Assembly (NCBI GenBank): GCA_027489105.1
Contig: JAIYAJ010000286.1
Location: forward strand, 1-8,912
Source of the DNA: Zymomonas sp.
GTDB lineage: Bacteria > Pseudomonadota > Alphaproteobacteria > Sphingomonadales > Sphingomonadaceae
DNA length: 8,912 bases
Direction of reading: 5' to 3'
Shown: positions 1 through 8,912 of the stretch, in pieces
How the letters are laid out: every line of letters starts with the position of its first letter
How positions within the stretch are numbered: position 1 is the first letter of the stretch
The notes under the pieces: model-generated
The model's database searches: none
What the model was told of the DNA's origin: nothing
What the model saw: only the letters and a program-made list of their open reading frames with translations
Position numbers and translations under genes: made by a program

Positions 1-40
1 CATTGCCGGTGGCACCTGCGACGACGACACGATAGCCCAT
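1..40 (-). CDS. asd: Aspartate-semialdehyde dehydrogenase, N-terminal fragment
   Basis: Only the first 13 codons are inside the window; the gene runs off the left edge. They translate to MGYRVVVAGATGN, the opening beta strand and glycine-rich turn of an NAD(P)-binding Rossmann fold. That opening is typical of aspartate-semialdehyde dehydrogenase in sphingomonads. The enzyme reduces beta-aspartyl phosphate to aspartate semialdehyde on the way to lysine, threonine, methionine and diaminopimelate. An AGAAGGAAC ribosome-binding site lies just upstream of the ATG at 40, which supports this start. The gene lies downstream of rplS on the same strand but behind a terminator, so it probably has its own promoter between 41 and 167. 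With so few residues, another Rossmann-fold dehydrogenase cannot be excluded. Confidence 0.72.
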   Translation of the reverse strand, partial: MGYRVVVAGATGN

Positions 41-59
41 GGTCAGTTCCTTCTAGGCG

Positions 60-146
60 GTCATTCCCGATGGGTTCGCCGGACGCGAGCGGCGGAGCAT
101 GAGCGGCTCATGATCCTGCGCGCGCGGCGCAGCGGGTGGGAATGAC
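60..146. repeat. Inverted repeats in the asd upstream region
   Basis: The 9-mer GTCATTCCC at 60-68 is matched by its exact reverse complement GGGAATGAC at 138-146. Between them is a palindrome CATGAGC-G-GCTCATG at 98-112. Just outside lies GATGT-AA-ACATC at 150-161. Together they could fold the asd leader RNA into a branched structure or mark regulator sites. No clear -35/-10 pair was found, and the function is unknown. Confidence 0.4.
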
Positions 147-167
147 AGGGATGTAAACATCTCGGGA

Positions 168-202
168 TAAACAAACGGCCGGTCTCCCTGGGGAGCCGGC
201 CG
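168..202 (-). terminator. Rho-independent terminator after rplS
   Basis: On the minus strand an 11-bp GC-rich stem forms between 176-187 and 192-202, with a 4-nt loop and one bulged base at 183. It is followed directly by the U-rich tract TTTGTTTAT (175 to 167). It lies 31 bases past the rplS stop codon and therefore ends the ffh-to-rplS operon and separates it from asd. It has all the parts of an intrinsic terminator. Confidence 0.85.
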
Positions 203-232
203 CTTGCGAGGTTTGGTTGGGAGAGCCCGGTC

Positions 233-622
233 TCAGGCTTCCTGGGCCTCGGCGGCCGGCTTGTTGTCACGACGCTCCGCAATACGCGCGGATTTGCCGC
301 GGCGGCCGCGGAGATAATAGAGCTTGGCGCGACGGACGACGCCCTTGCGGACGACTTCGATCGACTCGACGTTCGGCGAGTAGAGCGGGAAGACGCGCTC
401 GACGCCTTCGCCGAACGAAATCTTGCGAACGGTGAACGACGAACCCATGCCCTTGTTGGCGCGGGCGATGCAGACGCCCTCATAGGCCTGGATTCGAGTG
501 CGCTCGCCTTCGACGACCTTCACGCCGACGCGCAGCGTGTCACCGGGGCGGAAATCGGGAATCGACTTCGCTTCCTTGAACTTGGCAATCTGCTCGGCTT
601 CGAGCTGCTGGATGAGGTTCAT
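233..622 (-). CDS. rplS: 50S ribosomal protein L19
   Basis: L19 sits at the 30S-50S interface of the ribosome. The product, starting [15 protein letters not shown], is 129 residues. It carries the family core [13 protein letters not shown] (about residues 23-35), the [14 protein letters not shown] stretch and the conserved [18 protein letters not shown] near the C-terminus, followed by a short Ala/Glu-rich tail. Two ATGs compete. The one at 628 overlaps the trmD stop as ATGA but is only 2 bases from AAGGAG. The one at 622 is 8 bases from it, which is the normal spacing, so 622 is preferred; using 628 would add Met-Ser. The ribosome-binding site is inside the last codons of trmD, so translation is probably coupled. 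It is the last gene of the operon, before the terminator at 168-202. Confidence 0.96.
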
Positions 623-624
623 GC

Positions 625-1365
625 TCATCGCTCCTTCTTCTGTCGCCGCGCGCCAGAGGGAGACTGGTCCCGAGCGCCCTCATGGCGCTCCCAAAGGTCC
701 GGCCTCCTTAGCCTTGTATCGGTCTCGGCCATGGATTTGCGCCATGCCTCGATCCTCGCATGATCCCCAGATCGCAGCACTTCGGGGATCGTGCGCCCTT
801 CCCATTCGACAGGTCGGGTATAATGCGGATATTCGAGAAGCCCCGTTTCGAAGCTCTCGTCGTCCCCGCTATCGGGGGCGCCCATTACGCCGGGAAGCAG
901 CCGAATGCAAGCGTCGAGCAGGGTCAAAGCGCCCATTTCCCCGCCTGAAAGTATATAATCGCCGATCGAAACCGGCTCGATCGGACGCCCCTCGAACAGG
1001 CGTTCGTCGATTCCCTCGAATCGGCCGCACAGGATGGTGACGCCGGGCCCGGCGGCGAGCTGTCGCACGCGGGCCTGGGTCAATGGCGCACCGCGCGGGG
1101 TCATCGCGAGCAGGGGGGCATCGGGCTGGCGTTCGAGCGCATGGTCGACCGCGCGCGCCAATATGTCGGCGCGCATCACCATCCCCGCACCGCCGCCGGC
1201 CGGGGTGTCGTCGACCGATCGGTGCCGGTCGGTGGCGAAGTCGCGGATCTGAACCGGAGCGCACGCCCATTTCCCCTCCGCCAGCGCCCGCCCCGCCAGC
1301 GACACGCCGAGCGGGCCTGGGAACATCTCCGGGTAAAGGGTGAGGATGGTGGCGGTGAAGGTCAT
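625..1365 (-). CDS. trmD: tRNA (guanine-37-N1)-methyltransferase TrmD
   Basis: TrmD transfers a methyl group from S-adenosylmethionine to N1 of G37, next to the anticodon, in tRNAs that have G36; this prevents +1 frameshifting. The 246-residue product is of normal length. The SPOUT trefoil-knot signatures are present: MTPRGAPL (88-95), [10 protein letters not shown] (114-123), [11 protein letters not shown] (133-143) and LEYPHYTRP (177-185). The acidic residue in ESFETG (E170) appears to sit where the catalytic Asp169 lies in the E. coli enzyme. The start gives the canonical [15 protein letters not shown], but the ribosome-binding site is weak (only GGA about 14 bases upstream), and no better in-frame start exists. 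The 106-bp gap to vapC (1366-1471) shows no hairpin terminator or convincing promoter, so trmD may depend on transcription from upstream, including any vapBC promoter. Confidence 0.96.
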
Positions 1366-1471
1366 GTCAGCAAAGGTCCAGGCACGATCCGATGACGAAG
1401 GCGGTCACGCCAATGTCTGAAGATTCGAAAATGATTGGTGCGGACAGAGCAAAGTCGAGGCGCCGACCCAT

Positions 1472-1846
1472 TCAGATCGTCCAGTTCTCGACCTTGATGC
1501 CGGGGATGTCGGCAAAATGCGTTACATTGTCGGTGACGACGACGAGGCCGACAGACAATGCGTGGGCTGCGATAAGCCGATCATAGCTGGCGCGGCGAAA
1601 AGGAAGCGATGCATAGGCCAGTGCGGCCTCCACCCCGAAATCGAGAACGGGGACCTCTTCGAGGAAGGCGCGCAGCTGGTCCAGGGCCGGCGGTTTTCCC
1701 TGGACCGATCCATAGGCCACTTCGGCCAGAGCGATGGTCGACGTGACCATATCGCCTTCGTCGCATTCCGCCGCGCGTGCACGCAGCACCTCTCCCGATG
1801 CCATCGTCATGAGAATGATGATGTTGGAATCGAGGAGATATTTCAC
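1472..1846 (-). CDS. vapC: VapC-type PIN-domain ribonuclease toxin
   Basis: This is a 124-residue PIN-domain protein, the usual size for VapC, starting with GTG as VKYLLDSNIIILM. The acidic metal-binding residues of the family are visible: D6 in LLDSN, E42 in ALAEVAYG, D89 in YDRLIAAHAL and D106 in VVTDNVTHF. The C-terminus ADIPGIKVENW is also characteristic. VapC toxins are Mg-dependent endoribonucleases, often cutting tRNA or rRNA, and are held inactive by VapB; the target here cannot be read from sequence. The GTG start overlaps the stop of the upstream antitoxin as GTGA (1846-1843), the usual translational coupling of such pairs. A longer reading from an ATG at 1945 exists in this frame but only runs through the antitoxin gene and adds nothing conserved. 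Confidence 0.9.
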   Translation of the reverse strand: MKYLLDSNIIILMTMASGEVLRARAAECDEGDMVTSTIALAEVAYGSVQGKPPALDQLRAFLEEVPVLDFGVEAALAYASLPFRRASYDRLIAAHALSVGLVVVTDNVTHFADIPGIKVENWTI

Positions 1847-2187
1847 GGGCCCTCGGAGTCCGTGCCGTCGCAGCCTGCCAGCGGTCGTTCTTCGAAGAGC
1901 CTGTCCGCGGCCTTGATCGGCTGCAGGTTGGTCGCGGATCCCCACACCTTGTCGATCGCGAATTTGCGCTTGGGGGTCTCGACGGGGCTGAAGGCGTAAT
2001 GCTGGCCGTCTTCGACCCGCAATTCCATCTCCATGCCCGGCTCGAGGCCAAGGCCGGCGGGCAGTCGCAGAGCGAGCGAATTGCCCGACTTGAAGGTTCG
2101 CGCACGATAGAAGGCGACTTCCTTCAGCTTAAGACTCGGGATCGAGCCGTAAATGCTCGCCAGGGAAATCTTCTTGGCCTCGGTCAT
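1843..2187 (-). CDS. vapB: VapB-type AbrB-fold antitoxin
   Basis: The 114-residue product contains an AbrB/MazE-type swapped-hairpin DNA-binding domain at about residues 28-60. The signature FKSGNSLALRLPAGLGLEPG fits the family pattern 'F-x-[NS]-G-x-S-x-A-x-R-L-P'. The C-terminal part (about 65-114), with KVWGSATNLQPIKAADRLFEERP, would be the toxin-wrapping tail. It should neutralise the VapC encoded directly downstream (4-base overlap) and repress their common promoter. About 25 residues precede the usual beginning of the fold; no closer start codon was found in that stretch, so the ATG at 2187 with a weak AGGT ribosome-binding site is kept. A large inverted repeat 13 bases upstream fits autoregulation. 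The family assignment is strong, but the choice between the VapB and MazE name follows the PIN partner. Confidence 0.86.
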   Translation of the reverse strand: MTEAKKISLASIYGSIPSLKLKEVAFYRARTFKSGNSLALRLPAGLGLEPGMEMELRVEDGQHYAFSPVETPKRKFAIDKVWGSATNLQPIKAADRLFEERPLAGCDGTDSEGP

Positions 2188-2200
2188 GCAGCACCTGTCC

Positions 2201-2221
2201 GTATCTACGCTGCGTAGATAC
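2201..2221. promoter_or_regulatory. Perfect palindromic operator of vapBC
   Basis: The arms GTATCTACGC and GCGTAGATAC are exact reverse complements, separated by one base. The site starts at the stop codon of the upstream membrane-protein gene and ends 13 bases before the vapB ATG. A 10-bp dyad at this place is the normal kind of operator for an AbrB-fold antitoxin dimer and its VapBC complex. The symmetry is seen directly; the binding is inferred. Confidence 0.75.
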
Positions 2222-2243
2222 TACACCACCCGCCGTGCGACAA
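2215..2243 (-). promoter_or_regulatory. Candidate vapBC promoter
   Basis: On the minus strand TTGTCG (2243-2238) is followed after 17 bases by TATCTA (2220-2215). The -35 is close to consensus and the -10 is weak. The -10 lies inside the palindromic operator, so a bound VapBC complex would block it. The -35 lies inside the end of the membrane-protein gene. Confidence 0.4.
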
Positions 2244-2499
2244 TGTCGGTGCAGAGCGCCAGGAAGAAGCCGGCGAGCGCCATCAGGCCAAGGAGCGGCA
2301 ACCAGGTCGAAAAGGTCTGCGCATCGGCGCCATAGGCGAGCAGCGCCGCGATCGCCGCCGGGGGCACCGCGACCTGCAGCGCGGCGCTGACGATCCGCAG
2401 CTGGACCGGCAGGCGGCGCTTGCGCGTCCGCACGACGCCATAAGCGATGATCACCAGATAGAGCGAACCGATCAGCAGATAGGCGGTGATGGGATTCAT
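2221..2499 (-). CDS. Small three-helix membrane protein of unknown function
   Basis: This 92-residue protein is not recognised. Three hydrophobic segments are visible at about residues 4-23, 36-57 and 66-87. The basic loop RTRKRR (24-29) and the C-terminal ARR suggest that the loop and the C-terminus face the cytoplasm and the N-terminus faces the periplasm. The start codon overlaps the rimM stop as ATGA (2499-2496), and GGAG lies 8 bases before the ATG, so it is translationally coupled to rimM and belongs to the same operon. There is no signal peptide cleavage site or enzymatic motif. The last bases of its stop codon touch the vapBC operator. Confidence 0.8.
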   Translation of the reverse strand: MNPITAYLLIGSLYLVIIAYGVVRTRKRRLPVQLRIVSAALQVAVPPAAIAALLAYGADAQTFSTWLPLLGLMALAGFFLALCTDIVARRVV

Positions 2500-2969
2500 T
2501 CGACGAACTCCGGATCGATCAGCAGCCGCTCGGGCTCGATCGTGACCGCCTTGGCGACGGGAACCATGAAACGCTTGCCATCGGGCTTCTCGATTTCGAG
2601 GACATCGCCAGCCCCGAAATCCTCGACGAAGACGGCGGTCCCGATCGGGGCGTCGCCAGCGAAGCAGGGCAGGCCGATCAGGTCGATATGATAATATTCG
2701 CCCTCGGCGAGCGGCGGCAGCGCCGAGCGCGGTACGCTCAGTTCGGTTCCGCGCAGCGCCTCGGCGGCGTTGCGGTCGGCGATCTCTGCGAAGCGCGCGA
2801 CTGCGCCGTTGGCGCCCGTCCGGAGCGCCTTGAGCGTGAAGGTCCGCCCGGCGCCGTTGAGCGTCGGATAGGCCTTCAGATCCTCGCTGAACAGCTTCAG
2901 CCGCACCTCGCCCTGCAGGCCGTGCGCGCCGATGATCGCGGCGAGGACGATGGGACGATCGCTGGTCAT
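2496..2969 (-). CDS. rimM: Ribosome maturation factor RimM
   Basis: RimM helps assemble the head of the 30S subunit by binding S19 and assisting 16S rRNA processing. The 157-residue product begins MTSDRPIVLAAIIGAHGLQGEVRLK, the conserved N-terminal RimM barrel with the glycine-rich 'GAHGLQGEV' turn. It continues with the linker RNAAEALRG and then a PRC-barrel domain: GEYYHIDLIGL, then DVLEIEKPDGKRFMVP, ending LLIDPEF. It is somewhat shorter than the E. coli protein (about 180). GAGGAG lies 7 bases upstream of the ATG at 2969. The open frame continues upstream to 3356, but that part is antisense-like shadow through rpsP. It sits between rpsP and the membrane-protein gene, in the usual rpsP-rimM order. 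Confidence 0.95.
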   Translation of the reverse strand: MTSDRPIVLAAIIGAHGLQGEVRLKLFSEDLKAYPTLNGAGRTFTLKALRTGANGAVARFAEIADRNAAEALRGTELSVPRSALPPLAEGEYYHIDLIGLPCFAGDAPIGTAVFVEDFGAGDVLEIEKPDGKRFMVPVAKAVTIEPERLLIDPEFVE

Positions 2970-2992
2970 GCGGGTCTCCTCAGGACGGCCGA

Positions 2993-3012
2993 GACGCGAA
3001 GGGGTCCGCGTC
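2993..3012 (-). promoter_or_regulatory. Hairpin in the rimM leader
   Basis: GACGCG (2993-2998) pairs perfectly with CGCGTC (3007-3012) around an 8-nt loop, ending about 13 bases before the rimM ribosome-binding site. It is not followed by a U tract, so it is not an intrinsic terminator. In E. coli an RNA structure before rimM lowers its translation relative to the ribosomal proteins; a similar role here is inference. Confidence 0.4.
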
Positions 3013-3055
3013 ACGGGAGCCCCGGAAATGGCGAGCCGCCCGGCCCGCCCCGCAA

Positions 3056-3070
3056 CCGGTCGATGACCGG
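3056..3070 (-). promoter_or_regulatory. Hairpin between rpsP and rimM
   Basis: CCGGTC (3056-3061) and GACCGG (3065-3070) form a perfect 6-bp stem with a 3-nt loop in the 152-bp gap between rpsP and rimM. No U tract follows on the minus strand. It could protect the rpsP message 3' end or weaken readthrough into rimM. Confidence 0.35.
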
Positions 3071-3121
3071 CTACAGGGCAGGGGGCGGCATCGCACCTTG
3101 TCGATCCCCGAAGGGAAAGGA

Positions 3122-3538
3122 TCAGGCCTCGGCGGCTTCTTCGGCGGGAGCTTCGGCGGCCGGAGCCTCCTCGACCGGAGCCTTGGCGGCTTCCTCGGCG
3201 GCGGCCAGCTTGGCAGCACGCTCCTCGGCGCGCTCCTTGGCCTTCTCGCCCGGCTCGGCCTTTTTCGGGTTGCTGCGGGCGGCACGCTCCTTCACGCCGG
3301 CAGCGTCGAGGAAGCGGGCAACGCGATCGGTCGGCTGCGCGCCGACCGACAGCCAATGCTTGGCGCGCTCGGTGTCGAGTACGACGCGCTTGGGATCGTC
3401 CTTCGAGAGGAGCGGGTTATAGGCGCCGATCTTCTCGATGAAGGCGCCGTCGCGCGGGCTGCGCGAATTGGCGACGACGATGCGGTAATAAGGGCGCTTC
3501 TTGGCGCCGCCACGGGCGAGACGGATCGAGACGGACAT
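3122..3538 (-). CDS. rpsP: 30S ribosomal protein S16
   Basis: S16 is an early-binding protein of the 30S subunit body. The product is 138 residues. The conserved core (1-80) begins [20 protein letters not shown], with [21 protein letters not shown] and the later region [20 protein letters not shown]. Residues after about 85 are an Ala/Glu/Lys-rich extension, probably disordered, which makes the protein longer than the E. coli form (82). Such tails are common in alphaproteobacterial S16. AAGGAA lies 6 bases before the ATG at 3538. The gene follows ffh by only 42 bases and probably shares its transcript. Confidence 0.97.
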
Positions 3539-3580
3539 GGGGACTTCCTTTCTGAAATCGTACTGATCTGGATTAAGTGC

Positions 3581-5065
3581 TTATTTCTTCTTCAAGAAAT
3601 TCTGGAAACCGGGGGGCAGGCCCTGCGGATTGGTGGGCATGCCGGGAAGGCCGGGGAGGCTTCCGCCGCCGCCGGGCATCGGGGGCATGCCGCCCGCGCC
3701 GCCGCCAAGCAGGCCGCCGAGGCCACCACCACCGCCCAGAAGACCGGCGAGGCCCTTGAGGCCGCCCATCTTCTTCATCTTCTTCATGACGGTCGCCATG
3801 TCCTGATGCATCTTCAGGAGCTTGTTGACGTCCTGGACGGTCGTGCCGGACCCCTTGGCGACGCGGATCTTGCGCTTCGCGTTGAGCAGCTCGGGCTTGG
3901 CGCGCTCCTTGGGGGTCATCGAGCCGATGATCGCATCCATGCGCACCAGCACGCGATCGTCGGCCGCGCCCGAGGCCATCGCCTGCTTCACCTGCTTCAT
4001 GCCCGGCAGCATCGCGGCCAGGCCGGAAAGGCCGCCCATTCGGCGCATCTGGTTGAGCTGGTTGCGCAGGTCGTTCATGTCGAACAGACCCTTCGCCATG
4101 CGGGCGGCGAGCTGTTCGGCCTCCTCGGCCTTGATCGTTTCGGTCGCGCGCTCGACCAGGCTGACGACGTCGCCCATGCCCAGGATGCGACCGGCGACGC
4201 GCGACGGCTGGAACAGCTCGATGCCGTCCAGCTTCTCGCCCGTGCCGACGAACTTGATCGGCTTGCCGGTGACGGCGCGCATCGACAGCGCGGCGCCGCC
4301 GCGCGCATCGCCGTCCATCCGGGTCAGCACGACGCCGGTCAGCGCGACCTGATCGGAGAAGTTCTTGGCGACGTTGACCGCGTCCTGGCCGGTCAGCGCG
4401 TCGACGACCAGCAGGATTTCCTCGGGATCGGCGACGGCGGCGACCGCCTTCATCTCTTCCATCAGCGCCTGGTCGACATGGAGGCGACCGGCGGTGTCGA
4501 GCATCAGCACGTCGAAGCCCTGCAGCTTCGCGGCCTGCACCGCACGGCGGGCGATGTCGACCGGCTGCTGGCCGGCGACGATCGGCAGGGTCGCGACCGA
4601 GGCCTGGGTGCCGAGCACCGCCAGCTGCTCCTGCGCGGCCGGGCGGTTGACGTCGAGCGACGCCATCAGGACCTTCTTGCGGCCCTTCTCGGTCAGCCGC
4701 TTGGCGATCTTCGCAGTGGTGGTCGTCTTGCCCGAACCCTGCAGACCGACCATCATCACGATGGCGGGCGGGCTGACGTCGACATTGAGGTCGGAAGCCT
4801 CGGCGCCGAGCATTTCGACCAGCGCGTCGTTGACGATCTTGACGACCTGCTGGCCCGGCGTGACCGAGCGGAGCACCTGCTGGCCTACGGCCTGCTCGGT
4901 GACTTTGTCGACGAACTCGCGGACGACCGGCAGCGCCACATCGGCTTCGAGCAGCGCGATGCGGACTTCGCGCATCGCCTCGCGCACGTCCGATTCGGCG
5001 AGCGCGCCACGGCCGCGCAGGCGGTCGAAGACCCCGCCCAGCCTTTCGCTCAGACTTTCGAACAT
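3581..5065 (-). CDS. ffh: Signal recognition particle protein Ffh
   Basis: Ffh binds 4.5S RNA and hydrophobic signal sequences on the ribosome and, as a GTPase paired with FtsY, delivers nascent membrane proteins to SecYEG. The 494-residue product has the N domain (1-95) and a GTPase G domain with G1 GLQGSGKT (107-114), DVNRPAA (138-144), G3 DTAGR (190-194), G4 TRMDGDARGG (248-257) and G5 GTGEK (274-278). The methionine-rich M domain (about 320-435) contains the RNA-binding stretch RKIRVAKGSGTTVQDVN (398-414). Residues 434-494 form a Gly/Pro/Met-rich tail ending FLKKK. The start MFESLSERLGGVF at 5065 has GGAGAA 6 bases upstream; the frame stays open to 5218, but those 51 codons show no homology. 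First gene of the ribosomal operon. Confidence 0.97.
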   Translation of the reverse strand: MFESLSERLGGVFDRLRGRGALAESDVREAMREVRIALLEADVALPVVREFVDKVTEQAVGQQVLRSVTPGQQVVKIVNDALVEMLGAEASDLNVDVSPPAIVMMVGLQGSGKTTTTAKIAKRLTEKGRKKVLMASLDVNRPAAQEQLAVLGTQASVATLPIVAGQQPVDIARRAVQAAKLQGFDVLMLDTAGRLHVDQALMEEMKAVAAVADPEEILLVVDALTGQDAVNVAKNFSDQVALTGVVLTRMDGDARGGAALSMRAVTGKPIKFVGTGEKLDGIELFQPSRVAGRILGMGDVVSLVERATETIKAEEAEQLAARMAKGLFDMNDLRNQLNQMRRMGGLSGLAAMLPGMKQVKQAMASGAADDRVLVRMDAIIGSMTPKERAKPELLNAKRKIRVAKGSGTTVQDVNKLLKMHQDMATVMKKMKKMGGLKGLAGLLGGGGGLGGLLGGGAGGMPPMPGGGGSLPGLPGMPTNPQGLPPGFQNFLKKK

Positions 5066-5127
5066 GCGCTTCTCCAGCTGCGCCGAAGCGCGGGAATCCA
5101 GCCTTTCAAACCCGAAACGCAAAGCGC

Positions 5128-5171
5128 GCCGGCGGGCGAAACCTCGCCGGCCAGCGTGCGTCCGTGGACGC
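5128..5171 (-). promoter_or_regulatory. Two hairpins in the ffh leader
   Basis: GCCGGCG (5128-5134) pairs with CGCCGGC (5145-5151) around a 10-nt loop, and GCGTCC (5158-5163) pairs with GGACGC (5166-5171) around 2 nt. Both lie 60-110 bases before the ffh start. Neither has a U tract. Further upstream TTGCCT and TACAGG, 17 bases apart on the minus strand, could be a weak promoter for ffh. Function unproven. Confidence 0.3.
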
Positions 5172-5275
5172 TTCCAATGCTTTCCTTGTCTGTAAGACGG
5201 GGTCGCCTGTACCCGCAAAAGGCGCGAAAGGCAATTTCTATATGGGCTTGGCGACCGGCGGCCCGTTCATGCGAA

Positions 5276-5305
5276 GAGGGCCCGCCGCTTGCGCGACGGG
5301 TCCTC
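5276..5305 (-). terminator. Terminator-like hairpin after aceA
   Basis: A 13-position stem between 5276-5288 and 5293-5305, with one mismatch and one G-U pair, closes on the stable tetraloop GCAA (minus strand). It lies 30 bases past the aceA stop codon. Only TT follows, so it is an imperfect intrinsic terminator; it may act with Rho or protect the 3' end of the aceA message. Confidence 0.55.
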
Positions 5306-5335
5306 CCGAGCCTCTCCGATGTCTATGCCGTCCAC

Positions 5336-6931
5336 TTATGCTGCGAACTGGTTCATCGTGTTGTGAACGCCGCCGGCCTTGAGGGCCGCTTCGCCGGCGA
5401 AATATTCCTTATGGTCGTCGCCGATGTCCGAGCCCGACATGTTCTGGTGCTTCACGCAGGCGATGCCCTGGCGGATCTCCTGACGCTGCACGTTGAGCAC
5501 ATAGCCGAGCATGCCGGCGTCGCCGAAATATTCCTTGGCGAGGTTGTCGGTCGACAGCGCCGCGGTGTGATAGGTCGGCAGGGTGATCAGGTGGTGGAAG
5601 ATGCCCGCCCGCTTCGCTGCGTCGCGCTGGAAGGTGCGGATCTTCTCGTCGGCTTCACTGGCGAGGTCCGACCCGTCATAGTCGACGCTCATCAGACGGT
5701 TGCGGTCATAGGCCGCAACGTCCTTGCCCTCCTGCTGCCAGCGGTCGAACACCTGCTGACGGAAGTTCAGCGTCCAGTTGAACGAGGGCGAGTTGTTGTA
5801 GACCAGCTTGGCGTTCGGAATGACCTCGCGGATGCGGTCGACCATGCCGGCGATCTGCTCGATATGCGGCTTCTCGGTCTCGATCCACAGCAGGTCCGCG
5901 CCGTTCTGCAGCGACGTGATGCAGTCGAGGACGCAGCGGTCGGCGCCGGTGCCCTCGCGGAACTGGAACAGGTTGGAGCGCAGGCGCTTCGGGCGCATCA
6001 GCTTGCCGTTGCGGTTGATCACGACGTCGCCGTTGATGGTGGAGATGTCGGTGATCTCCTCGCAGTCGAGGAAGCTGTTATACTGATCGCCGATGTCGCC
6101 CGGCTCGGCCGAGTAAGCGATCTGCTTGGTGAGGCCCGCGCCGAGCGAGTCGGTGCGTGCGACGATGATGCCGTCGGTGATGCCCAGTTCGAGGAAGGCG
6201 TAGCGGCAGGCGCGGATCTTCGCGAGGAAGTCCTCGTGCGGCACGGTGACCTTGCCGTCCTGGTGGCCGCACTGCTTCTCGTCGGACACCTGATTCTCGA
6301 TCTGGAGCGCGCAGGCGCCGGCCTCGATCATCTTCTTGGCAAGCAGATAGGTCGCCTCGGCATTGCCGAAGCCGGCGTCGATGTCGGCGATGATCGGCAC
6401 GACGTGCGTCTGATAATTGTCGATCGCGTGGATCAGGCGCTGTTCCTCGACCTGGTTGCCGGTCTCGCGCGCCTTGTCGAGCTCGCGGAACATCAGGCTG
6501 AGCTCGCGCGCATCAGCCTGGCGCAGGAAGGTGTAGAGCTCTTCGATCAGCGCGGGCACGCTCGTCTTTTCATGCATCGACTGGTCGGGCAGCGGACCGA
6601 AGTCGGAGCGGAGCGCGGCGACCATCCAGCCCGACAGATACAAATAGCGGCGCTTGGTGGTGCCGAAATGCTTCTTGATCGAGATCAGCTTCTGCTGACC
6701 GATGAAGCCGTGCCAGCAGCCCAGCGACTGGGTGTAGTTGGCAGGGTCGGCGTCATAGGCCGCCATGTCCTCGCGCATGATCTTCGCGGTGTAGCGGGCG
6801 ATGTCGAGGCCGGTCTGGAAGCGGTTCTGCAGGCGCATCCGGGCGACCGCCTCGGCGCCGATCCCGGCCCAGGGCGAACCCTTCTGGCGGATCAGCTGTT
6901 CGGCCTGTGCGATTTCGTCCTGGTAGCTCAT
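5336..6931 (-). CDS. aceA: Isocitrate lyase (long form)
   Basis: Isocitrate lyase splits isocitrate into glyoxylate and succinate, the first step of the glyoxylate shunt used for growth on acetate, fatty acids and other C2 sources. The 531-residue product belongs to the long type found in Pseudomonas aeruginosa, as recalled. The active-site signature is KQCGHQ (219-224), with Cys221 as the catalytic base in place of the KKCGH of the E. coli form. Metal and substrate residues lie in ADIDAGFGN (182-190), ARTDSLGAG (258-266), ETEKPH (351-356) and NNSPSFNW (379-386); the C-terminus GSDIGDDHKEYFAGEAALKAG is also characteristic. AGGACA lies 7 bases before the ATG at 6931; an open extension to 7096 is noncoding in appearance. 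It stands alone, divergent from the GGDEF-EAL gene. Confidence 0.97.
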   Translation of the reverse strand: MSYQDEIAQAEQLIRQKGSPWAGIGAEAVARMRLQNRFQTGLDIARYTAKIMREDMAAYDADPANYTQSLGCWHGFIGQQKLISIKKHFGTTKRRYLYLSGWMVAALRSDFGPLPDQSMHEKTSVPALIEELYTFLRQADARELSLMFRELDKARETGNQVEEQRLIHAIDNYQTHVVPIIADIDAGFGNAEATYLLAKKMIEAGACALQIENQVSDEKQCGHQDGKVTVPHEDFLAKIRACRYAFLELGITDGIIVARTDSLGAGLTKQIAYSAEPGDIGDQYNSFLDCEEITDISTINGDVVINRNGKLMRPKRLRSNLFQFREGTGADRCVLDCITSLQNGADLLWIETEKPHIEQIAGMVDRIREVIPNAKLVYNNSPSFNWTLNFRQQVFDRWQQEGKDVAAYDRNRLMSVDYDGSDLASEADEKIRTFQRDAAKRAGIFHHLITLPTYHTAALSTDNLAKEYFGDAGMLGYVLNVQRQEIRQGIACVKHQNMSGSDIGDDHKEYFAGEAALKAGGVHNTMNQFAA

Positions 6932-6945
6932 GATTTGTGTCCTGC

Positions 6946-7006
6946 TGTACAAGTTATGTTGCCACTGACGCCCAAAAGCTCGAAAAGTCAGTAGGTGGCA
7001 TGTACA
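6946..7006. promoter_or_regulatory. Interrupted inverted repeat upstream of aceA
   Basis: The left arm reads TGTACA (6946-6951), TGCCAC (6960-6965), TGAC (6966-6969). The right arm is its mirror: GTCA (6987-6990), GTGGCA (6995-7000), TGTACA (7001-7006). The arms differ only by 8-nt and 4-nt interruptions, and the centre holds AAAAGCTCGAAAAG. It lies 15-75 bases before the aceA start codon. Likely an operator or mRNA leader structure controlling aceA; the regulator is unknown. Confidence 0.5.
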
Positions 7007-7059
7007 AAAGCGGGTCGAGCAGTGGGGCGCGGGCCGCTGATCAATGAAAATATGTAAGA

Positions 7060-7087
7060 AGTTTACAGACTGCCAGGGCGCGGACAA
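7060..7087 (-). promoter_or_regulatory. Candidate aceA promoter
   Basis: On the minus strand TTGTCC (7087-7082) is followed after 16 bases by TAAACT (7065-7060), each with a fair match to sigma-70 consensus. It would give a leader of about 120 bases containing the whole inverted repeat at 6946-7006. This is a weak, eye-only call. Confidence 0.27.
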
Positions 7088-7185
7088 GTCGGTCACGATC
7101 GAAAAGGCGCTGTCCGGACTCCGCGTTAAAGGCTTGGCAACCAGCCGCTCCTAGAGTCGGACGATCGATTTGGCCGGAGACAGAC

Positions 7186-8912
7186 ATGCACGACAGGATG
7201 CTGGGGGAGGGCCCGTCCGCGCGCCCCGTCCGCGACCGTCGTGATCTGCTCGCGGCGGGCGTCACCATCGCTGCCGTCCTGCTCGTCATCGTCTCGGCGC
7301 TCAGTGTGGTCGGCACGCTGGTGCGTGCGCAGGGGGCTTCGCTCTCGGTCGGCGACAACCTCACCATTTCGGTCCTGCTGCTCAACCTCGCTTTGATGCT
7401 GCTGGGGTGGCGGCGCTACCGGGCCCTCAAATATGAGGTCGAACTTCGTCGCGCTGCAGAGGCGCGCGCCAGCGAGCTGGCGACCTGCGACCCGCTCACG
7501 GGCATGCTCAACCGGCGTGCGCTGGCAGAGGCGGGCGCCCGGATGATCGATCATGTCCTGCCGCGCAACGGATCGCTCGCGATGCTCATGATCGACCTCG
7601 ACCATTTCAAGTCGGTCAACGACATGCACGGCCATCTGGCCGGTGACCAGTTGCTGCGTGCCGCCTCCCAAGCGATCGTGGCACCGCTCCCCGCCAATGC
7701 GCTTGCCGCCCGCCTCGGCGGCGACGAGTTCGCCTGTGCCTTTCCGATCAATCCCGACGAGCCCTCGGCTGTAGAAGGTGTAGCCGACGCGATCCTGGCG
7801 CGGATGAAGGAGCCCTTCTCGATCGGCGGGGTACAGGCGCGGATCGGCGCTTCGGTCGGCATCGCCCGCACCGAGCCGGGATGCCGCACGATCGACACGC
7901 TGATGCGCCGCTCGGACATCGCTCTATATGCCGCCAAGCGCGCCGGGCGGAACCAGCGCGCCTGGTTCGACTCCAGCATGGAACGCGAGCTGGAGCTGCG
8001 CAACGAGATCGAACTGGGCCTGCGCGCTGGGATTCCGAGCGGGCAGATCGTTCCCTGGTTCGAACCCCAGATCGATCTGGCGACCGGCGCCATCCGCGGC
8101 TTCGAGGTGCTGGCACGCTGGGAGCATCCCGACCATGGCGTGATCGAGCCGGTGGTGTTCATCCCGGTCGCCGACGAATCAGGCCTGATCGGCGAATTGT
8201 CGATGTCGGTGATGCGCGCGGCGATCGCCGAGGCGCGCCAATGGGATCCGGCGCTGATCCTCGCGGTCAACATCAGCCCGACGCAGATGCGCGACCCCTG
8301 GCTGGCGCAGAAGATCGTCAAGCTGCTGGTCGAGACCGGATTTCCCGCCAGCCGGCTGGAGATCGAGATCACCGAAAGCTGCCTGTTCGAGAACATGGGC
8401 CTGGCCCAGTCGATCATCGGCAGCCTCAAGAACCAGGGCGTGCGCGTCGCGCTCGACGATTTCGGCACCGGCTACAGCTCGCTGGCGCATCTGCGCGCGC
8501 TGCCGTTCGACCGGATCAAGATCGACCGCAGCTTCGTCACCTCGATGAACGAGAGCAAGGAAAGCCGCGCCATCGTCCAGACGATCGCGATGCTGGGCGA
8601 ATCGATGGGCCTGCCGATCACCGCCGAAGGCATCGAGGATGGCGACCTGATCGCGCATCTGACCGAAATCGGCTGCGCCAAGGGCCAGGGTTTCCATTTC
8701 GGCCAGCCTTTGTCGGTCGAACAGGCGCGCCGCCTTCTGGCCGAGGCAGGCTGGGCCGAGGGCTTCCGGATGGTGCTGGGCGGGCCGAACAACCGGATCG
8801 TGAATGACGAGCGCATTCTGCAGGCCCTCGCGCAGATGTGGGAGCGGCTGGGCGTCTCGGTCGAAGTGCAGGCGCAGCCCATGGCGGTCTACCTGCCGCG
8901 CTTCGTCGCGGG
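7186..8912 (+). CDS. Membrane GGDEF-EAL cyclic-di-GMP protein with foreign C-terminus (partial)
   Basis: The frame is open from the ATG at 7186 (GGAG 7 bases upstream) to the window edge, 575 codons. Two membrane segments (about 21-45 and 59-74) are followed by a short charged helix (80-98). A GGDEF domain follows, with DPLTGMLNRR (102-111), metal Asp137 in DLDHFKSVND and an intact GGDEF (178-182). The RxxD inhibitory site expected just upstream is absent (residues read PANA). Next is an EAL domain with EVLAR (307-311), Asn362, Glu394/Glu397 in EIEITES, DDFGTGYSSL (424-433), Lys445, Glu481 in AEGIE and Gln501 in GQGF. All metal and catalytic positions are present, so it could both make and degrade cyclic-di-GMP. 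After about residue 515 the sequence is no longer GGDEF/EAL but reads as a solute-binding protein. The catalytic domains face the cytoplasm. It is divergent from aceA. Confidence 0.9.
   Translation, partial: MHDRMLGEGPSARPVRDRRDLLAAGVTIAAVLLVIVSALSVVGTLVRAQGASLSVGDNLTISVLLLNLALMLLGWRRYRALKYEVELRRAAEARASELATCDPLTGMLNRRALAEAGARMIDHVLPRNGSLAMLMIDLDHFKSVNDMHGHLAGDQLLRAASQAIVAPLPANALAARLGGDEFACAFPINPDEPSAVEGVADAILARMKEPFSIGGVQARIGASVGIARTEPGCRTIDTLMRRSDIALYAAKRAGRNQRAWFDSSMERELELRNEIELGLRAGIPSGQIVPWFEPQIDLATGAIRGFEVLARWEHPDHGVIEPVVFIPVADESGLIGELSMSVMRAAIAEARQWDPALILAVNISPTQMRDPWLAQKIVKLLVETGFPASRLEIEITESCLFENMGLAQSIIGSLKNQGVRVALDDFGTGYSSLAHLRALPFDRIKIDRSFVTSMNESKESRAIVQTIAMLGESMGLPITAEGIEDGDLIAHLTEIGCAKGQGFHFGQPLSVEQARRLLAEAGWAEGFRMVLGGPNNRIVNDERILQALAQMWERLGVSVEVQAQPMAVYLPRFVA
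8725..8912 (+). other. In-frame segment resembling the C-terminal lobe of an SBP_bac_5 peptide-binding protein
   Basis: From codon 514 of the GGDEF-EAL frame the protein reads ARRLLAEAGWAEGFRMVL, then GGPNNRIVNDERILQALAQM and WERLGVSVEVQAQPMAVYLP. This follows the pattern of family 5 ABC-transporter substrate-binding proteins: 'A-x-x-LL-x-E-A-G-[YW]-x-x-GF', then 'PN-x-R-x-x-[ND]-D-x-x-[IL]-x-Q-A-[IL]-A-Q-M', then 'R-[IL]-G-[IV]-x-[VT]-x-V-x-x-x-P-x-x-x-[YF]'. Those proteins are normally periplasmic and about 500-600 residues long; only a late internal part is present here and no signal peptide of its own. The reading frame continues without a stop to the window edge. Family likeness is recalled, not searched. 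It may be a true fusion, the remains of a deletion, or a misassembly. Confidence 0.7.

What the first reader, a model, noticed from the sequence alone, without database searches (positions are those of the whole stretch)
8700..8912. In-frame fusion of a GGDEF-EAL protein to a family 5 peptide-binding-protein lobe
The EAL domain is complete up to GQGFHFGQPLSVEQA, then the same frame continues as a solute-binding-protein C-terminal lobe (LLAEAGWAEGF, GPNNRIVNDERILQAL, RLGVSVEVQAQP). The seam lies on ARRLLAEAG: 'A-x-x-LLA' is a common end of EAL domains and 'A-x-x-LL-x-EAG' a common motif in SBP_bac_5 proteins. This suggests recombination at microhomology. A cytoplasmic cyclic-di-GMP enzyme carrying half of a periplasmic ligand-binding fold would be a new architecture if real. 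The orientation is odd, because the lobe would sit in the cytoplasm and be incomplete. An assembly chimera or a genomic deletion joining two genes is at least as likely.
Basis: partly seen in the sequence, partly recalled or inferred. Interest (0 to 1): 0.82.

Follow-up and report, generated by a model that had tools for sequence, protein, structure and literature searches.

The report
Chimeric contig end, not gene fusion
The apparent fusion of a signalling enzyme with part of a transport protein is almost certainly an artificial join of DNA from three different bacteria at the end of an assembled sequence, so it is not a new kind of protein.

Summary
The reading frame is as described: one ORF (7186 to the window end) runs GGDEF, EAL, then about 55-60 residues of an SBP_bac_5 protein. 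(1) Up to about 8287 the DNA is Rhizorhabdus-type: 987 of 1112 ORF bases match genome G400, and G291 is collinear with the window from base 1. (2) From 8288-8329 to 8725-8745 it is Blastomonas-type: 432 of 448 bases match genome G314, and 150 consecutive residues are identical. (3) From there on it is the interior of an ordinary SBP_bac_5 gene (98% and 93% to P0121 and P0122). In the four genomes read, the enzyme gene ends normally after EAL. No match from 397 family genomes spans the SBP seam by more than 18 bases. Of 222 listed proteins, none matches both the EAL and SBP pieces, and none is close to both EAL halves. Both switches fall in conserved stretches, and the window ends 167 bases after the second. 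This fits a contig end extended through words shared between species, or a library chimera. No reads were available, so this is inferred, but a real fusion is very unlikely. Verdict: artefact.

The parts
7186..8297 (+). 5' part of a GGDEF-EAL gene of Rhizorhabdus type (native part of the contig; 8288-8297 already lies in the interval of seam 1)
   Evidence: 987 of 1112 bases identical to G400 (L114) and 939 of 1112 to G291 (L115), against 712 of 1112 to G314 (L116) and 694 of 1112 to G338 (L117); residues 1-367 are 88% identical to P0001
8288..8329 (+). seam 1: interval of the switch from Rhizorhabdus-type to Blastomonas-type DNA, inside the EAL domain
   Evidence: last site that matches both Rhizorhabdus-type references only is 8287; sites that match both Blastomonas-type references only are 8304 and, without interruption by the other kind up to the end of the stretch examined (8419), from 8329 on; one such site (8262) lies left of the seam; best single break for G400 against G314 is between 8287 and 8304
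8298..8745 (+). second half of an EAL domain of Blastomonas type
   Evidence: 432 of 448 bases identical to G314 and 425 of 448 to G338, against 306 and 302 of 448 to G400 and G291; residues 370-519 identical to the G314 protein
8725..8745 (+). seam 2: stretch coding for ARRLLAE, where EAL changes to SBP_bac_5
   Evidence: exact match to G314 runs 8647-8735 and stops there; identity to SBP protein P0122 starts at residue 514, codon 8725; the nine closest genome matches stop at 8744-8745
8746..8912 (+). internal piece of an SBP_bac_5 gene, cut off by the window end
   Evidence: residues 520-575 are 98% identical to P0121 and 93% to P0122, where the shared word begins at residues 350 of 529 and 368 of 547; Pfam profile positions 265-326 of 368

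Best explanation
The 3' end of the window is an artificial chimera. A contig from a Rhizorhabdus-type genome was extended first into the corresponding GGDEF-EAL gene of a Blastomonas-type genome, through a conserved stretch of the EAL domain. It was then extended into an unrelated SBP_bac_5 gene of a third organism, through a short word coding for ARRLLAE. The apparent in-frame fusion arises because the shared words are coding sequence read in the same frame in each donor. The mosaic itself is shown. That it arose during assembly or library preparation rather than in a cell is inferred; the confidence covers both of these technical routes together.
For: In 50-base bins, identity to G400 (L099) is 92-96% over 7986-8285, 86% in the bin at 8286, 74-88% over 8336-8535 and 50-64% over 8536-8735, while identity to G314 (L084) goes from 62-72% over 7986-8285 to 90-100% over 8286-8735. 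Of 527 sites that tell G400 from G314, 330 of 385 left of the best break favour G400 and 134 of 142 right of it favour G314. Of 222 listed proteins, 35 are at least 70% identical to residues 1-367 and 20 are at least 90% identical to residues 384-514, and no protein is in both sets; the best of the first set reaches 72% in the second piece, and the best of the second set 49% in the first piece. Of the same 222, 216 match the EAL piece and 6 the SBP piece, with 0 in common. The gene ends normally after EAL in the four genomes read. G291 is collinear with window 1-8537 at 90%, G400 with 1-1367 and 2223-8537 at 92-94%. The SBP proteins P0121 and P0122 have an ordinary first half. Of 397 genomes of the family, 33 match window 8650-8860 at E <= 1e-5; the nine closest end at 8744-8745, and the furthest of the 33 ends at 8763. 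The window ends 167 bases after seam 2.
Against: No reads or coverage were available, and no whole genome is held for the window, so that the record is a metagenome contig is inferred. The DNA of the SBP donor could not be found, so the shared word at seam 2 is known only from its protein and from the EAL side. At seam 1 the available references do not share one long exact word: within 8288-8328 G400 is exact over 8288-8297 and 8308-8328, and G314 over 8299-8328; the true donors may differ from these references. 55 of 385 informative sites left of the break and 8 of 142 right of it go the other way, as imperfect references would give. The frame stays open across both seams, as a real fusion would require, although a join at coding words in register also gives this.
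Confidence: 0.96

Rival explanations
1. A genuine genomic rearrangement: homologous recombination replaced the 3' half of the EAL domain with a Blastomonas allele, and a separate microhomology-mediated event joined it to a horizontally acquired SBP_bac_5 gene, giving an in-frame fusion or a dead pseudogene.
For: The frame is open throughout; seam 1 lies between homologous genes, where recombination is possible in principle.
Against: It needs two independent events with two different foreign donors within about 460 bases, both close to the window end. No match from 397 family genomes spans seam 2 by more than 18 bases. Seam 1 was not searched as a DNA junction, but none of 222 listed proteins is close to both EAL halves. 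The SBP piece would be an internal fragment without the first 349 residues of P0121.
Confidence: 0.02
2. An EAL protein that truly carries a cytoplasmic peptide-binding lobe as a sensor or regulatory domain, i.e. a new architecture maintained by selection.
For: Only the single reading frame of the window.
Against: No homologue with this architecture was seen: 0 of the 120 listed hits of the ORF (of 7993 above threshold) carry PF00496, and the 6 hits of the tail carry PF00496 alone although proteins of fusion length were admitted as candidates. The tail is 98% identical to an ordinary transporter component over 56 residues.
Confidence: 0.01
3. Sub-case of the best explanation: a library chimera (for example from multiple displacement amplification or PCR) rather than a join made by the assembler. 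Its probability is part of the 0.96 above.
For: The middle block of about 400-460 bases is of the order of a sequencing fragment; short shared words also promote template switching (inference from general knowledge).
Against: Nothing tested here separates it from an assembler join.
Confidence: 0.15

Closest known systems
Inter-species chimeric contigs of de Bruijn graph metagenome assembly (PMC8171044, passages seen)
   Same: A contig whose non-overlapping parts match different species, joined at a stretch of sequence common to them
   Different: The passages describe stretches common to two evolutionarily similar species; here the second join reaches an unrelated gene through a much shorter shared word
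GGDEF-EAL protein of Rhizorhabdus type, 547 aa (P0001; P0003 and P0008 are named)
   Same: Residues 1-367 are 88% identical to P0001
   Different: The native proteins keep their own second EAL half and their own tail; P0001 ends at residue 547, with its LLAGRG, the counterpart of LLAEAG, starting at 517
GGDEF-EAL protein of Blastomonas type (P0064, P0082; genome G314)
   Same: Residues 370-519 identical to the G314 protein
   Different: The native protein has its own first half and its own tail after ARRLLA
SBP_bac_5 substrate-binding protein (P0121, P0122)
   Same: Residues 520-575 are 98% and 93% identical
   Different: These are 529 and 547 aa long, with 349 and 367 residues before the shared word

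Membership tests
Bifunctional GGDEF-EAL protein | GGDEF and EAL domains above the Pfam cut-offs | tested here: met
   GGDEF 129 bits, EAL 217.5 bits, but the EAL domain is itself made of two kinds of sequence
SBP_bac_5 solute-binding protein | Complete SBP_bac_5 domain | tested here: not met
   Only profile positions 265-326 of 368 are present; the piece corresponds to the interior of P0121 and P0122
True EAL-SBP_bac_5 fusion architecture | Same junction in at least one independent genome or protein | tested here: not met
   0 of 397 family genomes gave a match spanning seam 2 by more than 18 bases; 0 of 222 listed proteins match both pieces
Chimeric contig | Non-overlapping parts best match different species | tested here: met
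Chimeric contig | Switch lies in a word shared by both donors | tested here: inconclusive
   Seam 1 lies in a conserved stretch but the references share no exact run over the whole interval; at seam 2 the shared word is shown for the peptide only
Chimeric contig | Coverage break or lack of spanning reads at the seams | not testable with these tools
   No reads held

The most novel reading that the evidence does not exclude
A real cell carries a twice-recombined gene in which a cyclic-di-GMP enzyme acquired a Blastomonas EAL half and then part of a peptide-binding protein.
Probability: 0.02. Interest if true: 0.55.

Novelty: not a real feature. Interest (0 to 1): 0.04.

Why it matters
It matters as a caution: in-frame 'new domain architectures' at the ends of short assembled contigs can come from joins at conserved coding words. 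The open frame gives no protection, because such words can be in register in both donors. A segment-by-segment nearest-relative check, as done here, exposes them without reads.

Tried and rejected
Considered and rejected: a real new architecture; two separate genes joined by a frameshift (the frame is open, and the tail is the interior of an SBP gene); a simple deletion joining two neighbouring genes (blastn of the window against the loci L114 and L115, which hold a few kilobases beyond the gene, returned no match after 8537; this is a DNA search with a short tail within a limited stretch).

Led nowhere: finding the DNA of the SBP donor. P0122 gave at best 42% identity in 385 genomes of the class (4 of 385 at E <= 1e-120). 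The families and orders of two of those hits hold only 1, 4, 4 and 1 genomes: 0 of 1 and 0 of 4 at E <= 1e-130, and 4 of 4 and 1 of 1 at E <= 1e-110 with 37-42% identity. In plasmids 2959 records matched, the best at 44% on a Roseomonas plasmid. The donor may be an alphaproteobacterium outside the sampled genomes, possibly near Roseomonas; this is weak. The solved-structure search with the tail gave only marginal hits: best E = 0.021 to an allophycocyanin chain, SBP chains at E = 0.23-1.3. NCBIfam gave the tail only GsiB at E = 0.07, far below its cut-off. No paper in the library holds all four terms solute-binding, GGDEF, EAL and SBP_bac_5; this is one narrow search and no proof of absence.

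Full report
What is there. On the minus strand Pfam identifies ribosomal protein L19, a tRNA (guanine-1)-methyltransferase, a PIN-domain protein, RimM, ribosomal protein S16, SRP54 (ffh) and isocitrate lyase; two further ORFs given to it had no match. On the plus strand an ORF runs from 7186 and is still open at the window end. It holds GGDEF (residues 99-257), EAL (280-508) and then an SBP_bac_5 match (510-566, 27.9 bits against a cut-off of 32.4). The finding's observation is therefore correct, and the SBP identity is not chance: residues 516-575 match P0121 at 98% with E = 2e-29 and P0122 at 93%.

A second seam. Aligned with 11 relatives, the ORF resembles the Rhizorhabdus-type proteins (P0001, P0002, P0003, P0005, P0008, P0013, P0018) up to about residue 367 and the Blastomonas protein P0064 from there to residue 519. 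A search with residues 382-520 alone gives 94-99% identity to the first 20 listed proteins and 85% or less to the next; the three of the 20 with an organism name (P0064, P0065, P0074) are Blastomonas. The best hit of the whole ORF is only 79% identical. By segment, among the 222 proteins listed in the three searches, residues 1-367 are closest to P0001 (88%), residues 384-514 to P0048 and P0082 (99%), and residues 520-575 to P0121 (98%). The 35 proteins at least 70% identical to residues 1-367 and the 20 at least 90% identical to residues 384-514 do not overlap.

DNA evidence. Two of the 14 genomes of the genus of Sphingomonas sp. Y57 (G001) were read at length: G291 is collinear with the window over 1-8537 at 90%, and G400 over 1-1367 and 2223-8537 at 92-94%. 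I call this type Rhizorhabdus because G117:C1, of the same genus, has the same length (5,026,772) as the contig of P0008, Rhizorhabdus dicambivorans; I call the second type Blastomonas because G248:C12 (121,085) has the length of the contig of P0064, B. natatoria, and G314 and G338 fall in the same group of nine genomes at 91-97%. In 7186-8297 the window matches G400 at 987 of 1112 bases and G314 at 712 of 1112; in 8298-8745 it matches G400 at 306 of 448 and G314 at 432 of 448. Of 527 sites that tell the two apart, the best single break lies between 8287 and 8304, with 330 against 55 sites on the left and 134 against 8 on the right. Residues 370-519, 150 in a row, are identical to the G314 protein, which then continues with its own tail. 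In all four genomes read the enzyme gene ends normally after EAL. In G314 and G338 the gene also lies beside rimM, rpsP and ffh homologues, so the two donor genes are positional counterparts.

The SBP seam. The exact match to G314 ends at 8735, and identity to the SBP protein P0122 starts at residue 514, codon 8725. The two donors share the peptide ARRLLA there. In 397 genomes of the family, the query 8650-8860 matched in 33 at E <= 1e-5. The nine Blastomonas-type matches end at 8744 or 8745. Nine other matches run 5 to 18 bases further, the furthest to 8763. Three of these (G122, G398, G349) are only 30-33 bases long, at 93-97% identity around 8723-8755, which shows that the word at the seam recurs elsewhere in the family. 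The piece lies inside a protein of 529-547 residues, whose first 349-367 residues are missing here.

Interpretation. Three donors within about 625 bases, two switches in conserved stretches, a middle block of about 400-460 bases, and a window end 167 bases after the last switch are what a contig looks like when its end is extended through words shared between species. For de Bruijn graph assemblers, a chimeric node is described as a stretch common to two similar species (PMC8171044, passages seen). [quoted passage not shown] A chimera formed during library amplification would look the same. That the record is a metagenome contig, and that the join is technical, are inferences: no genome is held for the window and no reads were available.

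Against this reading. The frame stays open; seam 1 lies between homologous genes where natural recombination could occur; the references share no exact word over the whole of seam 1; and I could not fetch the DNA of the SBP donor. I consider a natural double recombinant possible at about 2%.

Conclusion. The fusion should not be reported as a new architecture. The part of the contig that I would rely on ends at about 8287.

Noticed in passing
window 1472-2187 (-); L114 10896-11544: Between trmD and the following gene the window has a PIN-domain gene and a small upstream partner, like a toxin-antitoxin pair. The otherwise collinear genome G400 does not align there and has two ORFs of similar size and look at the same place (read by eye), while G291 aligns across the region; this looks like an exchange of the pair at a fixed site.
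   Followed up: partly
window 5336-6931 (-): Isocitrate lyase lies beside the GGDEF-EAL gene in 8 of 11 loci of the genus (L099-L103, L105-L107); L104 and L109 show no such match, and L108 is cut by its contig. In Sphingomonas laterariae (L002) ffh and the GGDEF-EAL gene are adjacent without it.
   Followed up: partly
protein P0121: P0121 is listed with '-' for sources, the sign the tool uses for proteins that the window itself encodes, yet the window encodes only a piece of about 60 residues of it with one difference; unexplained.
   Followed up: no
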